In this document: positions 9,570 to 16,730 of the stretch, in pieces
How positions within the stretch are numbered: the first letter of the stretch is position 1
Layout of the letters: every line of letters starts with the position of its first letter
DNA from: Roseovarius amoyensis
GTDB lineage: Bacteria > Pseudomonadota > Alphaproteobacteria > Rhodobacterales > Rhodobacteraceae
Reading direction: 5' to 3'
DNA: 64,000 nucleotides
Assembly (NCBI RefSeq): GCF_003260265.1
Contig: NZ_QITQ01000006.1
Span: forward strand, 62,001 to 126,000
The notes under the pieces: generated by a model
Told to the model about the DNA's origin: nothing
What the model saw: only the letters and a program-made list of their open reading frames with translations
Databases searched by the model: none
Translations under genes and position numbers: made by a program

Positions 9570-10256
9570 ATGAACGGGCGGACGATCATTGCCCTTGTCT
9601 TTGGCATTATCGGGGTGGCGGTCCTGGTCTGGCTGGGGGCGTGGCAGGTCGAGCGGCTGGCCTGGAAAAATAGCATCCTTGCCCAGATCAAGGAGCGCAT
9701 CGCCGACGCCCCCGTGCCTCTGCCTGAAAACCCCGAACCCGAGCGCGACAAGTACCTGCCGGTGCAAATCGACGGTACATTCGGCGACGAGGCGCTGCGC
9801 GTGCTGGTCAGCCGCAAGCTGGTGGGCGCAGGGTATCGGCTGATTTCGCCGTTTGAGACCGGCGGCCGGCGGGTGCTGGTCGATCGCGGCTTTGTCGGGG
9901 TGAATGATCCGGTGCCAGCACCACGGGGCGGGAATGTGACTGTCACCGGCAACCTGCACTGGCCCGACGATCGCGGCAGCGCGACGCCGGAAAACGATAC
10001 CGGCGGCAACATCTGGTATGCGCGCGATATCGACGCCATGGCGCGGCAGTTGGGGACCGACCCGGTGCTGGTGATCGTGCGGAAATTGTCGCAGCCCGAG
10101 CAGGGTGTGACGCCTCTGCCTGTGGACACCGCCGCGATTCCGAACGATCACCTGCAATATGCGATAACCTGGTTCGCCCTCGCGGTGGTCTGGGCGGTGA
10201 TGACCGGATATTTCATTTTGCGCGCGCAGGCTGCGCGGAAAGGTGCGGGACGATGA
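9570..10256 (+). CDS. surf1: SURF1 family cytochrome oxidase assembly protein
   Basis: Assists heme a insertion into subunit I. 228 aa with the two-helix SURF1 architecture: an N-terminal helix (about 5-24) followed by the GAWQVERLAWK signature, a periplasmic domain containing VLVDRGFVGV, and a C-terminal helix (about 197-219) preceded by NDHLQYAITWFALA. Its last codons overlap the thrC start by four bases (ATGA), so it is coupled to thrC even though their functions are unrelated. Confidence 0.94.
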   Translation: MNGRTIIALVFGIIGVAVLVWLGAWQVERLAWKNSILAQIKERIADAPVPLPENPEPERDKYLPVQIDGTFGDEALRVLVSRKLVGAGYRLISPFETGGRRVLVDRGFVGVNDPVPAPRGGNVTVTGNLHWPDDRGSATPENDTGGNIWYARDIDAMARQLGTDPVLVIVRKLSQPEQGVTPLPVDTAAIPNDHLQYAITWFALAVVWAVMTGYFILRAQAARKGAGR

Positions 10257-11641
10257 AATACATCTCGACGCGGGGCAACGCCCCGGTGCTGAGTTTCGAA
10301 GAGGCGATGCTGACGGGTCTGGCGCGCGATGGCGGGCTCTACCTGCCCGAAACCATCCCCCAGATGTCGGCGGCCGACATCGCCGCGCTGGAGGGGCAGA
10401 GCTATGAAGAGGCCGCGTTCCGTGTGATGTGGCCCTATCTGGGCGGCGCCTTCACCGAGGACGAATTCCGCGCCATCATCGCGCGTGCCTATGACGGTTT
10501 CGCCCACGCGGCCCGCGCGCCGCTGGTGCAGCTGGCGCCGGGGCATTTTCTGCTGGAGCTGTTTCACGGGCCGACGCTGGCGTTCAAGGATTTCGCTATG
10601 CAGCTCATCGGCCAGCTGTTCGAGGCGTCGCTCAAACGATCGGGCCGGCGGGTGTGCATCGTCGGCGCCACCAGCGGCGACACCGGCAGCGCGGCGATCG
10701 AGGCATTTCGCGGCCTCGATGCGGTCGATGTCTTTATCCTTTACCCGCATGGCCGGGTGTCCGAGGTCCAGCGCCGGCAGATGACCACGCCGTCCGAGGC
10801 CAACGTGCACGCGCTGGCCATCGACGGGCATTTCGACGATGCCCAGGCGCGGGTCAAGGACATGTTCAATGACTTCGCCTTTCGTGACGCGGTGCACCTT
10901 GCTGGCGTGAACTCGATCAACTGGGCGCGGGTGCTGGCGCAGGTGGTCTATTACTTTACCTCGGCGGTTTCGTTGGGTGCGCCGCATCGCAGTGTCAGCT
11001 TTACCGTTCCGACCGGCAATTTCGGCGATATCTTCGCCGGCTACATCGCCAAACGGATGGGCCTGCCCATCGACCGATTGGTCGTTGCCACCAACCGCAA
11101 CGACATCCTGCACCGCTGCCTGGGCACCGGCGCCTATCGCCCCGCAGGGGTGGCCCCCACGATCAGCCCGTCGATGGATATCGAGGTCAGCTCGAATTTC
11201 GAGCGCGCGCTTTTTTGCGCCTATGGCCAGGACAGTGGCGCCGTGGCGCAACTGATGGACGAGCTGAAGGCCGGCGGTTTCAACGTCAGCCAGGGCGCGC
11301 TGGAGGCGCTGCAAGAGAGCTTTGACAGCGGCAGCGCCACCGAGGATGAAACCCGCGCCACCATTGCCCGCACCCGGCAGGAGACCGGCGAACTGATCTG
11401 CCCGCACACCGCCGTGGGCGTCAAGGTTGCCGGCGAACATCTTGCCCCCGGCACGCCGATGATCACGCTGGCCACGGCCCACGCGGCCAAGTTCCCCGAC
11501 GCGGTGGAACAGGCCAGCGGCACGCGCCCCCCCTTGCCTAAGCACATGGCTGACCTGTATGAGCGATCGGAACGGGTGACACGGGTCGCCAACGACCTTG
11601 CCGCCATCGAGGATATCATCAGGGATCGTACCGGGAATTGA
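10253..11641 (+). CDS. thrC: Threonine synthase
   Basis: PLP enzyme converting O-phosphohomoserine to threonine. 462 aa, the longer bacterial/fungal type. The N-terminal MKYISTRG and DGGLYLPE are family hallmarks. The PLP lysine is Lys112 in HGPTLAFKDFAMQ, and GATSGDTGSAA is the phosphate-binding loop. It overlaps surf1 by four bases and the next gene by four (TTGA), forming a continuous translation unit. Confidence 0.97.
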   Translation: MKYISTRGNAPVLSFEEAMLTGLARDGGLYLPETIPQMSAADIAALEGQSYEEAAFRVMWPYLGGAFTEDEFRAIIARAYDGFAHAARAPLVQLAPGHFLLELFHGPTLAFKDFAMQLIGQLFEASLKRSGRRVCIVGATSGDTGSAAIEAFRGLDAVDVFILYPHGRVSEVQRRQMTTPSEANVHALAIDGHFDDAQARVKDMFNDFAFRDAVHLAGVNSINWARVLAQVVYYFTSAVSLGAPHRSVSFTVPTGNFGDIFAGYIAKRMGLPIDRLVVATNRNDILHRCLGTGAYRPAGVAPTISPSMDIEVSSNFERALFCAYGQDSGAVAQLMDELKAGGFNVSQGALEALQESFDSGSATEDETRATIARTRQETGELICPHTAVGVKVAGEHLAPGTPMITLATAHAAKFPDAVEQASGTRPPLPKHMADLYERSERVTRVANDLAAIEDIIRDRTGN

Positions 11642-12900
11642 GTGTCAATCTGACCACCCTGCCGAACGGCTTTCGTATCGTGACCGAGCATATGCCCGGC
11701 CTGCAATCGGCCGCGGTCGGGGTGTGGGTTCTGGCCGGCGCCCGGCACGAGGAGGCAGCCGAGAACGGCATCGCGCATTTCCTCGAACACATGGCGTTCA
11801 AGGGAACCGAGCGGCGCAGCGCCTTGCAGATTGCCGAGGTGATCGAGGATGTGGGCGGCTACATCAACGCCTATACCTCACGCGAGGTGACAGCCTATTA
11901 CGCCCGTGTATTGCAGGACGACGTGCCACTGGCGGTGGACGTGCTGGCCGACATCCTGCGCGCGCCGGTCTTCGACCCGCGCGAGATCGAGATCGAACGC
12001 GGGGTGATCTTGCAGGAAATCGGGCAGGCGCTGGACACGCCCGACGACATCATCTTTGACTGGTTGCAGGAACGGGCCTATCCCGACCAGCCGCTGGGCC
12101 GCACCATCCTGGGCGAGGCCGCCGGCGTGCAGCGGTTTGCCCGTGATGACCTGACCGGGTTTGTCGGCCGTCATTACCGCCCTGCGCAGATGGTCCTTTC
12201 CGCCGCCGGCGCGGTCGATCACGACGCGCTGGTGCGCGATGCGGAACGGCTGTTCGGCGACATGGTCGGTGGCACCGCCAGCCCGGCGCCCGCCGCGCGT
12301 TTTGCCGGTGGCGAAAGCCGCCACGTCAAGCAACTGGAACAGGCGCATTTCGCGCTCGCGTTCGAGGGGCCGGATTATACCGACCCCGGCATTCACGCGG
12401 CGCAGATCTATGCCAACGCGCTGGGCGGGTCGATGTCGTCGCGACTGTTCCAGGAAATCCGCGAACGGCGGGGGCTGTGCTATACCATCTATGCCCAGGC
12501 CGGCGCCTATTCCGATACCGGCATGATGACGATCTACGCGGGCACCTCTGCCGCGCAGATGCAGGACCTGGCGCAGATCACCATCGACGAGATGAAGCGC
12601 GCCGCAGGCGACATGACCCTGGCCGAGTTGGAGCGCGGACGCGCCCAGATGAAGGCAGGGCTGCTGATGGGGCTGGAAAGCTCGTCGAACCGGGCGGAAC
12701 GGCTGGCGCGGATGCTGCAGATCTGGGGCCGGGTGCCGCCGCTGGACGAGGTGGTGGAAAAGATCGACGCGGTCACGCTGGCCGATCTGCACGACATCGC
12801 AGAACGCACCATCGCCACAGCGCCCGCCGCGATGGCGCTATACGGGCCGGTCGAGTCCGCGCCGACACTGGCCGCGCTGCAGGAAAGGCGCGCCGCCTGA
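11638..12900 (+). CDS. M16 family zinc peptidase (processing-peptidase-like)
   Basis: 420 aa, single pitrilysin/MPP-beta-like polypeptide. The inverted zinc motif HFLEH is at residues 47-51, with the third ligand Glu127 in RGVILQEIGQ, so it should be catalytically active. A glycine-rich segment typical of MPP subunits is seen as LGGSMSSRLFQEIRE. The start is a TTG overlapping the thrC stop; alignment with family N-termini (LTTLPNGFRIVTE) supports it, and the next Met is 18 residues in. Cytosolic; substrates unknown. Conserved downstream of thrC in this family. Confidence 0.92.
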   Translation: MSVNLTTLPNGFRIVTEHMPGLQSAAVGVWVLAGARHEEAAENGIAHFLEHMAFKGTERRSALQIAEVIEDVGGYINAYTSREVTAYYARVLQDDVPLAVDVLADILRAPVFDPREIEIERGVILQEIGQALDTPDDIIFDWLQERAYPDQPLGRTILGEAAGVQRFARDDLTGFVGRHYRPAQMVLSAAGAVDHDALVRDAERLFGDMVGGTASPAPAARFAGGESRHVKQLEQAHFALAFEGPDYTDPGIHAAQIYANALGGSMSSRLFQEIRERRGLCYTIYAQAGAYSDTGMMTIYAGTSAAQMQDLAQITIDEMKRAAGDMTLAELERGRAQMKAGLLMGLESSSNRAERLARMLQIWGRVPPLDEVVEKIDAVTLADLHDIAERTIATAPAAMALYGPVESAPTLAALQERRAA

Positions 12901-13484
12901 TGTTTCTGCAGCGCCGGAAGCTGCGGATAGAAACCGAGCGTCTGACCCTGCGCGAACCCCAGCTTTCCGATTTTCGCGCCTGGTCCTCCCTGCGCGCGCA
13001 AAGCGCCGAATTCCTGACCCCGTGGGAGCCGCAATGGGCGCGCGATCACCTGTCGCGCAAGGGCTTTTCCAACCGCGTATGGTGGGCGCAGCGGGCGATC
13101 GCGGACGGGTCGGCGATACCGCTGTTTCTGATCCGGCGTTCGGATGAGGAACTGGTGGGGGCGATCACGCTGGACAACATCCGCCGCGGGCCGGCGCTGG
13201 CCGGGACGCTGGGCTATTGGGTGGGCCAGCCCCATGCGCGGCAGGGCTTCATGCACGAGGCGCTGCAGGGGGTGGTGCATTACGCCTTTGAACGGCTGGA
13301 TCTCAGCCGGCTGGAGGCCGCCTGCCTGCCGGAAAACCAGCCATCGCGCCGGCTGCTGGAAACCTGCGGGTTCAAATACGAAGGCGTCGCGCAAAGCTAT
13401 CTGCAGATCAACGGGCGCTGGCGGACGCATGTTCTTTATGCCGCGCTGCGCTCCGACCGCAGGGGACGGGTGCAGGGCGGCTAG
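12900..13484 (+). CDS. GNAT N-acetyltransferase, RimJ-like
   Basis: 194 aa. The N-terminal ETERLTLREPQLSDF and the acetyl-CoA loop LGYWVGQPHARQGFMHEAL place it in the RimJ/RimL GNAT group, which acetylates protein N-termini or small amines; the substrate here is unknown. The start overlaps the M16 stop by one base (TGATG). It is the last gene of the run that starts at ctaC. Its stop overlaps the end of the convergent dddP pseudogene by four bases. Confidence 0.9.
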   Translation: MFLQRRKLRIETERLTLREPQLSDFRAWSSLRAQSAEFLTPWEPQWARDHLSRKGFSNRVWWAQRAIADGSAIPLFLIRRSDEELVGAITLDNIRRGPALAGTLGYWVGQPHARQGFMHEALQGVVHYAFERLDLSRLEAACLPENQPSRRLLETCGFKYEGVAQSYLQINGRWRTHVLYAALRSDRRGRVQGG

Positions 13485-14460
13485 CCCTCGCCCATCAGCG
13501 CGGGGTCATAGCGATAGCGGGTCAGGTTCTCGTACCCGTCCTCGGTGATCAGCACCTGGTCCTCCAGCTTTATCGAGAAATCGCCGCCTTCCTCGCCCAC
13601 AAGCGCCTCGACGCACAGTACCATGCCGGGCTCGAGCGGATAGTCGAACGCACCGGGCACCGCCGCGTCGGGATAGGCGACAAGCGGCCATTCGTCGCAC
13701 AGCCCGACCCCGTGCATCATACATCCGTATTTCTGGGCTTGGAACGCGTCGTCGAGCATATGCATGCCTTTCGATAACTCGGGGATCATCACGCCGGGCT
13801 TTAGCATTTCCATGTTGGTCATGATGTGTTCGTGCGCGTGACGCATGGCATAGATCATCGCGTTCGATGGTTTGCGATCACCGATCCACCATGTGCGCGA
13901 GATATCGACGCAGATGCCGTAGCAGCCGATCAGGTCGGTGTCGAAGGCGACGATCTTGTTCATCTGCACGATGCGGGGGCCGCATTCCTGAAACCACGGG
14001 TTGGTGCGGGGCCCGCTGGTCAGCAGGCGGGTTTCGATCCATTCGCCGCCGCGCCGGAACGCGCCTCGCGCACCAGCGGGTTGAAGGACGTAAGGAATGG
14101 CGCGTTCTTGTAGTCCCAAATCACCATATAACTATCGGCGCAGAGCAGCAGTGCCCGAAACGGGTTGCGGGTGTTCCAAAGCTGCATGTTGGTGCTGTCG
14201 GTGGCGTAGCGGATGTTGAGCGGGTCAAAAAGAAGCAGACCGGCATAGTCGCGCTCGACCACGTGCCGCGTCAGCCGTTCCCAGCGATAGCGGCGCATCG
14301 CCTGCAGGTCGGGTAGGTCCAGACCCGCCGCCGCCCACTCGGCGAAGGCCAGTTGCGTCGGCCCGATCTCGATGCGGTCGGCGTCGTTGGGGGTGTTGTC
14401 GCCCAGCCGGTCGGCGCGGCCCGGGTCGATCTTGCGGATGTCGCGGTAATGGGGCTGCAT
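13481..14460 (-). pseudogene. dddP: DMSP lyase DddP, disrupted by an internal deletion and frameshift
   Basis: DddP (M24 peptidase fold) cleaves dimethylsulfoniopropionate to dimethyl sulfide and acrylate. The first 138 codons (MQPHYRDIRKIDPG to NPLVREARSGAA) match the DddP N-terminus. The frame then changes and resumes 191 residues from the C-terminus at RRGGEWIETRLL. The C-terminal part keeps the metal residues in FDTDLIGCYGICVDISRTW, the His in HGVGLCDE, and Glu in CVEALVG and KLEDQVLIT. Family members are about 445 aa, so roughly 115 residues are missing. The breakpoint is in the tract CCGGCGCGGCG (complement of 14047-14057). Either a real null allele or an assembly error. Confidence 0.85.
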
Positions 14461-14637: not shown

Positions 14638-15672
14638 TCAGCCGCCGCGCACCGCCTCGATCATGCGGGTGACATTGTCGGGGTCGGCATCGGGGGTAAT
14701 CCCGTGGCCGAGGTTGAAGATGTGCGCGCCCTTGCGGAACGCCGCGACGATGCGGCGGGTTTCGCGCACCAGGTCATCGCCCCCCGTTACAAGGTGGCCG
14801 GGTGCGAGGTTACCCTGCACGCAGCCCGACACCTGCACGTTTTCGGCGGCCCATTCCGGCGTCACCGAATTGTCGATCGCGACGCAATCGGCGCCGGTGG
14901 CGGCGTGAAACCCGATATAGCGATCACCCGCCTCGCGCGGGAAGGCGATGACCGGGATGTCCGGGTGCCGCGCCTTGAGCTCGGAAACGATCCGGCGCGT
15001 GGGGGCGATGGCGTAGCGGTCGAAATCCTCGCCCTTCAGCGACCCGGCCCAGCTGTCGAACAGCTTGACGCACTCCGCCCCGGCCTCGATCTGGGCCGAA
15101 AGGTATTCGACGGTGGCCGCGCTGATCCGCTCGATCAGGGCATCGAACAGCGCGGGGTTCTCGGCCTTGAGCGCGTGTGCCGGCCCCTGGTCGGGGGTGC
15201 CGCGCCCGGCGATCATGTAGGTCGCCACCGTCCAGGGCGCCCCGGCAAAGCCGATCAGCGTGGTCTGCGCCGGCAGGGCAGAGGCCAGGTTGCGAACGGT
15301 GCCATAGACCGGCGCGAGCGTGTCGTGAATGTCCTGTGGTCCCGCCAGGCGGTCGAAATCGTTCTGGGTGGTGAGGGGCGAAAGGCGCGGCCCCTCGCCG
15401 GTGACGAACCACAGCTCGGCGCCCAGCGCCTGCGGCAGCAGCAGGATGTCGGCAAACAGGATCGCCGCGTCAAAGCCGTAGCGGCGGATCGGTTGCAACG
15501 TCACCTCGGTCGCAAGGTCGCTGTTGTAGCAAAGCGACAGAAAGTCGCCCGCCTTTTCCCGCGTGGCGCGGTATTCCGGCAGATAGCGGCCGGCCTGCCG
15601 CATCATCCAGATGGGCGGAATTTCCTGCACCTCGCCGGCAAGCGCCCTGAGGATGGATTTTGTCTGTGCCAT
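14638..15672 (-). CDS. hemE: Uroporphyrinogen decarboxylase
   Basis: Converts uroporphyrinogen III to coproporphyrinogen III in heme biosynthesis. 344 aa, standard length. The N-terminal [18 protein letters not shown] is the family signature (substrate-binding Arg and catalytic region), and [18 protein letters not shown] is the second. Cytosolic. It is divergent from hemC with 98 bases between the two starts, so the two heme genes may share a control region. Confidence 0.98.
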
Positions 15673-15770: not shown

Positions 15771-16730
15771 ATGACCAAGGATTTGCCCACCCCCGACCGC
15801 CCGCTCAGGATCGGCACGCGCGGCTCGCCGCTGGCGCTGGCACAGGCGCATGAAACCCGTGACCGGCTGGCAGCGGCGTTCGATCTGGACCCCGGTGCAT
15901 TCGAGATCGTGGTGATCCGGACCACCGGCGATGACCGTGCACTGATCGCCACCGATACGCCGCTCAAGGAACTGGGCGGCAAGGGGCTGTTCACCCGCGA
16001 GATCGAAGAGGCGCTGTTGTCGGGCGGTATCGACATTGCGGTGCATTCGATGAAGGACATGCCGGTCCTGCAACCGGCCGGGCTGGTGCTGGACACCTAC
16101 CTGCCGCGCGAGGATGTGCGCGATGCCTTTGTCTCGCCCGTGGCGGACGGGCTGGCGGCGCTGCCCGAGGGGGCCAAGGTGGGTACCTCGTCGCTCAGGC
16201 GGCGGGCGCAGGTGCTGGTCGCCTGGCCGCATCTGCAGGTGGTGGAGTTCCGCGGCAACGTCCAGACCCGGCTGCGCAAGCTGGATGAGGGCGTCGCGGC
16301 CTGCACCTTTCTGGCGATGGCGGGGCTCAACCGGCTGGGGCGCACTGACGTGGCGCGCAAGGCGCTTGCGCCCGAAGAGATGCTGCCGGCCGTGGCGCAG
16401 GGCGCCATCGGGATCGAGCGTCGCGCGGATGACAGCCGCGTGGCCGAGATGCTGGCCGCCATCCACGACGTCGAAACGGGGCAGCGGCTGGCGGCCGAGC
16501 GGGCGTTCCTGGCCACGCTTGACGGTTCCTGCGAGACCCCGATCGCGGGGCTGGCCGAACTGGAGGGCGGCACGCTGCGGCTGAGGGGCGAGATCCTGCG
16601 CCCCGATGGCAGTGAGTGCCTGAAGGACGACGCCAGCGCCCCGGTCGAGGACGGCGCCGCGCTGGGCCGCGACATGGCGCGCCGTCTGCTGGACCGCGCC
16701 GGTCCGGGCTTTTTCGACTGGCGTGGCTGA
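15771..16730 (+). CDS. hemC: Porphobilinogen deaminase (hydroxymethylbilane synthase)
   Basis: Polymerises four porphobilinogens to hydroxymethylbilane. 319 aa. The N-terminal RIGTRGSPLALAQA is typical; the substrate/cofactor region VHSMKDMP and the arginine-rich GTSSLRRRAQ are present. The dipyrromethane cofactor cysteine is Cys254 in DGSCETPIAG. It supplies heme for, among others, the oxidase encoded upstream. A short gene remnant overlaps its last codons. Confidence 0.97.
   Translation: MTKDLPTPDRPLRIGTRGSPLALAQAHETRDRLAAAFDLDPGAFEIVVIRTTGDDRALIATDTPLKELGGKGLFTREIEEALLSGGIDIAVHSMKDMPVLQPAGLVLDTYLPREDVRDAFVSPVADGLAALPEGAKVGTSSLRRRAQVLVAWPHLQVVEFRGNVQTRLRKLDEGVAACTFLAMAGLNRLGRTDVARKALAPEEMLPAVAQGAIGIERRADDSRVAEMLAAIHDVETGQRLAAERAFLATLDGSCETPIAGLAELEGGTLRLRGEILRPDGSECLKDDASAPVEDGAALGRDMARRLLDRAGPGFFDWRG

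What the first reader, a model, noticed from the sequence alone, without database searches (positions are those of the whole stretch)
13481..14460. dddP inactivated by a probable microhomology-mediated deletion
The N-terminal (138 codons) and C-terminal (191 codons) parts of DddP are both clean but lie in different frames, with about 115 family residues missing between them. The tract CCGGCGCGGCG at the junction (complement of 14047-14057) matches what is expected at both deletion endpoints from the conserved RSGA and IRRGGEW codons, so slippage between short direct repeats would explain loss and shift together. It suggests recent loss of one DMSP-cleavage route.
Basis: partly seen in the sequence, partly recalled or inferred. 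Interest (0 to 1): 0.7.

Follow-up and report, generated by a model that had tools for sequence, protein, structure and literature searches.

The report
dddP broken by one 364-base deletion
A marine Roseovarius-type bacterium carries its DMSP-cleaving gene dddP broken by a single 364-base deletion; this is an ordinary kind of gene loss, caught while still young, in a genome with few other signs of DMSP breakdown.

Summary
The reverse-strand gene at 13481-14460 is DddP in two frames (family positions 2-136 and 256-443). Intact relatives typically have 1344 nt; 980 + 364 = 1344, so one 364-nt deletion (121 codons + 1 base) explains both the missing segment and the frame change. The closest intact copy found (G080/L033) lies in the same gene order, thrC-M16-GNAT-dddP-hemE-hemC. 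The missing segment was not found elsewhere in the genome, with positive controls.

The microhomology is plausible but at most 10 nt (TCCGGCGCGG, 14049-14058), not 11; its true length is unknown. A compatible window this long arises at 0.8% of random deletions.

The remnants show no clear relaxation of selection (dN/dS 0.134; neighbours 0.124-0.199), so the loss looks recent. Contrary to 'one route', no DmdA and no DddD-sized frame were found. One divergent cupin keeps the DddQ catalytic residues, so DMSP cleavage may persist. dddP is over the family cut-off in 59 of 83 genus genomes: such loss is ordinary. An assembly artefact is not excluded without reads.

The parts
14047..14460 (-). N-terminal part of dddP, codons 1-138 from the ATG at 14460; the frame then runs on to a stop at 14020-14022 (146 codons in all)
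   Evidence: NF043017 positions 2-136, E 2.3e-77; ORF list; frames
13481..14053 (-). C-terminal part of dddP in another frame, from the RGGEW motif to the stop; keeps Asp295, Asp297, Asp307, His371, Asp377, Glu406, Glu421
   Evidence: NF043017 positions 256-443, E 2.3e-114; PF00557; aligned to 4rzy residues 258-445; residues checked
14049..14058 (-). Deletion junction: TCCGGCGCGG, which could stem from either end; 364 nt are missing here relative to intact copies
14638..15672 (-). hemE, syntenic neighbour, intact
   Evidence: 90% identical to the G080 neighbour in the same order
12897..13484 (+). GNAT acetyltransferase, convergent syntenic neighbour (start codon assumed)
   Evidence: 85% identical in G080, same order
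11638..12900 (+). M16 peptidase, syntenic neighbour
   Evidence: 88% identical in G080
10253..11641 (+). thrC, syntenic neighbour
   Evidence: 89% identical in G080
15771..16730 (+). hemC, syntenic neighbour
   Evidence: 89% identical in G080

Best explanation
A recently formed dddP pseudogene. An intact 447-codon gene, inherited at the thrC-M16-GNAT-dddP-hemE-hemC locus, lost 364 nt in one event, most likely by slippage or end-joining between short direct repeats (up to 10 nt). The loss takes about residues 135-256: the second half of the N-terminal domain, the hinge and the first part of the catalytic domain. It also shifts the frame, so translation from the normal start ends after 146 codons. 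Shown: deletion size, orthologous locus with an intact gene in G080, no copy of the segment elsewhere in the assembly. Inferred: loss of lyase activity, the slippage mechanism, and recency.
For: Two-frame DddP; 122 codons between the anchor motifs in 23 of 23 intact genus copies, giving a 364-nt gap; G080 gene 1344 nt and best breakpoint at base 401-402; same gene order in G080; segment absent from G000 but found in G080, G004 and G053 with the same query; no listed row from another genome runs across the junction; 10-nt compatible window in 0.78% of 40,000 random deletions; dN/dS 0.134 like the neighbours; RdDddP domain layout (PMC4108388, passages).
Against: No reads, so an artefact is possible. 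Microhomology length is modelled at 0-10 nt, mean 4.4, about 53% below 5 nt; in G080 both ends share 5 nt. Four substitutions at columns at least 97% conserved hint at some decay, but 2 of the other 96 sequences have as many or more. No activity was measured.
Confidence: 0.9

Rival explanations
1. Assembly or library artefact: the organism has an intact dddP and the 364 nt were dropped by a chimeric read or a faulty join.
For: The genome is a draft of 85 contigs and no reads are at hand; a few other broken frames exist in it.
Against: Genome 99.99% complete, 0.03% contamination; the segment is nowhere else in the assembly; a 10-nt overlap is shorter than the words that short-read assemblers normally join on (recalled); the flanking genes are open and syntenic.
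Confidence: 0.07
2. The C-terminal fragment is still made and does something as a small metal-binding protein.
For: All six metal ligands and Asp377 kept, frame open; no clear relaxation of selection.
Against: It lacks the N domain, hinge and the start of the catalytic fold; in RdDddP the partner's N domain walls the tunnel to the active site (PMC4108388, passages). Normal substitution counts are equally expected of a young pseudogene.
Confidence: 0.03

Closest known systems
DddP DMSP lyases (NF043017; solved chains 4rzy, 4s00, 4s01, 4b28)
   Same: Sequence of both parts; all metal ligands; the locus is orthologous to the intact G080 gene
   Different: 364 nt missing, frame shifted, so no full-length product
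G071 dddP (L149)
   Same: Another genus member with dddP broken into two frames, its two parts also matching DddP
   Different: Break at about residue 250 with a one-base overlap of the frames and no missing segment: a separate event
Pseudogenes made by deletion between short direct repeats (general knowledge, recalled)
   Same: One deletion with a short stretch compatible with both ends
   Different: The repeat itself is not proved here

Membership tests
Functional DddP DMSP lyase | Full-length match over the NF043017 cut-off (600 bits) in one frame | tested here: not met
   Parts score 260.6 and 382.6 bits separately; no other match in G000 at E <= 1e-40
Functional DddP DMSP lyase | Six metal ligands and catalytic Asp377 | tested here: met
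   All present in the C part, in the shifted frame (residue roles from PMC4108388)
Functional DddP DMSP lyase | Cleaves DMSP to DMS and acrylate | not testable with these tools
   Needs an assay
dddP pseudogene | Orthologous locus with an intact gene in a close relative | tested here: met
   G080: same order, intact 1344-nt gene
dddP pseudogene | Lesion confirmed by reads | not testable with these tools
   No reads available
Deletion between direct repeats | The same short sequence at both ends of the lost segment in the unbroken allele | tested here: inconclusive
   At most 10 nt; exact 10-mer upstream in 7 and downstream in 16 of 99 intact copies; 5 nt shared in G080
Cupin DMSP lyase (C5 protein of G000) | PF16867 match and the residues Tyr120, His123, His125, Glu129, Tyr131, His163 of DddQ | tested here: met
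   47.5 bits, cut-off 27; all six residues in the alignment (roles from PMC4437653, passages). Activity untested; no NCBIfam match

The most novel reading that the evidence does not exclude
An otherwise complete, 3.8-Mb member of a DMSP-degrading genus has recently lost its last working DMSP-catabolic enzyme and is a freshly made, naturally 'DMSP-blind' Roseovarius.
Probability: 0.3. Interest if true: 0.4.

Novelty: new member of a known kind. Interest (0 to 1): 0.25.

Why it matters
Surveys that count dddP fragments as DMS potential would miscount this strain, since both remnants match DddP strongly. If reads and an assay confirm it, this strain and its G080-type relative form a natural pair for asking what loss of DMSP cleavage costs a marine roseobacter. 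Otherwise it is one more loss in a genus where dddP is often absent.

Tried and rejected
Relocation or an intact second copy: not found; the segment has no match in G000, and the other M24 hits there do not reach E 1e-40 with the DddP model. Clear relaxed selection: not found (in one search G000 had fewer lineage-unique changes than G080, on average 10.6 against 17.5 residues over 95 outgroups). The hemE comparison covered only 198 of 344 codons; not followed up.

My first idea that only PF16867 hits above about 100 bits are real lyases: dropped. I therefore compared the C5 cupin directly.

Other DMSP enzymes: five PF13607 proteins exist; of the four large ones, three were scanned with NCBIfam (the C36 one was not) and none got a DMSP label, which does not exclude DddX. 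DddY, DddK, DddU and Alma1 were not searched on their own.

Print: searches for a reported broken dddP were 2 papers; 1; 7; 7. Passages of four papers were read; none describes a broken dddP. The others were seen as listings only. (deletion by short repeats) was seen as a listing only.

Full report
Observation. The reverse-strand stretch 14460-13481 starts as DddP in one frame and ends as DddP in another. NCBIfam NF043017 (DddP) matches the first 138 residues at positions 2-136 (E 2.3e-77) and the last 191 at 256-443 (E 2.3e-114). A whole-genome search with this model finds only these two pieces in G000 at E <= 1e-40.

Deletion. Of the 25 loci, I set aside the own locus (L007) and one cut by a contig end (L008). 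In the other 23 the frame is intact and the two anchor motifs are 122 codons apart. Of 99 distinct intact copies from 127 loci, 58 are 1344 nt long, 32 are 1341, 7 are 1347 and one each 1338 and 1350; that of G080 is 1344. The window gene is 980 nt; the difference is 364 = 3 x 121 + 1. Matching the window gene from both ends against G080 gives the best breakpoint at base 401-402, with 821 of 980 bases identical. One event explains the loss and the frame change.

Orthology. G080's contig has the same length (845,710) as the record of L033, titled Roseovarius sp. isolate FR_34. It has thrC, M16 peptidase, GNAT, dddP, hemE and hemC in the same order at 85-90% protein identity, with dddP intact. 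In the genus DNA search (84 genomes, 76 with a match) no listed row from another genome runs across the junction; the listing was cut at its weak end. The lost segment has no match in G000 at E <= 0.01, while the same query finds it in G080, G004 and G053.

Microhomology. The junction bases that could stem from either end are TCCGGCGCGG (14058-14049). The left neighbour T differs from the downstream base (A in 93, G in 6 of 99) and the right neighbour C from the upstream base (A in 94, C in 4, G in 1 of 99), so the repeat is at most 10 nt. Many of these bases are silent positions: 7 of 99 intact copies have the exact 10-mer upstream and 16 of 99 downstream. Combining observed ends that agree with the junction gives 0-10 nt, mean 4.4, about 47% at 5 nt or more. 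G080 shares 5 nt (CGCGG). In 40,000 random deletions in 96 of the 99 copies, a compatible window of 10 nt or more arose in 0.78%, and actual homology of 5 nt or more in 0.76%. A repeat probably helped; this is inference.

Consequence. RdDddP has an N-terminal domain (51-206), a hinge (207-208) and a pita-bread domain (209-444), and the partner's N domain walls the substrate tunnel (PMC4108388, passages). The deletion takes about residues 135-256. The six metal ligands and Asp377 remain in the C part but in the shifted frame; the normal start leads to a 146-codon product. A dddP mutant of R. nubinhibens made only 10% of wild-type DMS (PMC5395565, passages). Loss of activity here is inferred.

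Age. For 320 retained codons dN/dS against G080 is 0.134; thrC, M16, GNAT, hemE (198 codons only) and hemC give 0.124-0.199. pN/pS of G000 against 92 sequences of similar pS averages 0.244, against 0.203 (sd 0.049) for 3940 other pairs; by mean pN/pS G000 ranks 9th and G080 first of 97. G000 has fewer lineage-unique changes than G080. Against this, four substitutions hit columns at least 97% conserved (175 such columns), where the mean over 97 sequences is 0.6; only 2 of the other 96 have as many or more. Overall the gene was under normal constraint for most of the time since the split, so the deletion looks young.

Genome context. DmdA (NF009133) is over its cut-off in 60 of 83 genus genomes; G000 has nothing at E <= 1e-60. 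Of its 12 GCV_T hits, the only full-length one in a frame of DmdA size (394 aa) is GcvT. Of 17 CoA_transf_3 hits the longest frame is 472 aa, too short for two-domain DddD (size recalled). PF16867 gives one protein on C5, 47.5 bits, with best solved-structure matches 5cu1 and 4b29 at about 3e-10. In an alignment of 20 genus cupins it groups with those of G080, G006, G012, G035, G053 and G064 (69-79% identical), is 28-38% identical over 90-166 residues to the two G068 cupins, and keeps all six residues named as essential in DddQ (PMC4437653, passages). It could be a lyase. As its G080, G006 and G053 relatives stand beside intact dddP genes in the same genomes, it is not a replacement that came in after the loss.

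Genus. DddP is over the cut-off in 59 of 83 genomes; some of the other 24 are incomplete. By my reading, of 71 genomes at least 90% complete and at most 5% contaminated, G000, G015 and G073 lack DddP over cut-off, DmdA over cut-off and any PF16867 hit of 50 bits or more (G000's stands at 47.5). G080, with no DmdA hit (91% complete), keeps dddP and a 178-bit PF16867 protein. G071 has a separate frame break at about residue 250.

Verdict. A real, probably recent, single-deletion pseudogene. Ordinary in kind, well documented.

Noticed in passing
L149 (G071:C55), reverse strand, about DddP residue 250: dddP of another genus member is split into two frames overlapping by one base, with no segment missing.
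   Followed up: partly
G052:C1:2362453-2363771: An extra dddP-like copy in two pieces with one TGA, besides an intact one.
   Followed up: no
L140:907-909 (G000:C54): A frame with a GCV_T domain is cut by an in-frame TAA; the reading continues in the same frame after it.
   Followed up: partly
L006:1501-1779 (G000:C77:146447-146725): A degraded M24 peptidase remnant with two TGA, beside an intact frame that looks like an ammonia-lyase (my reading of the translation).
   Followed up: partly
G000:C36:9674-10754: A CoA_transf_3 gene is split between two frames, one part with a TGA.
   Followed up: no
L180 (G000:C5:79200-81200): A cupin of the PF16867 superfamily, with close relatives in at least six other genus genomes, carries the DddQ catalytic residues but no NCBIfam name.
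   Followed up: partly
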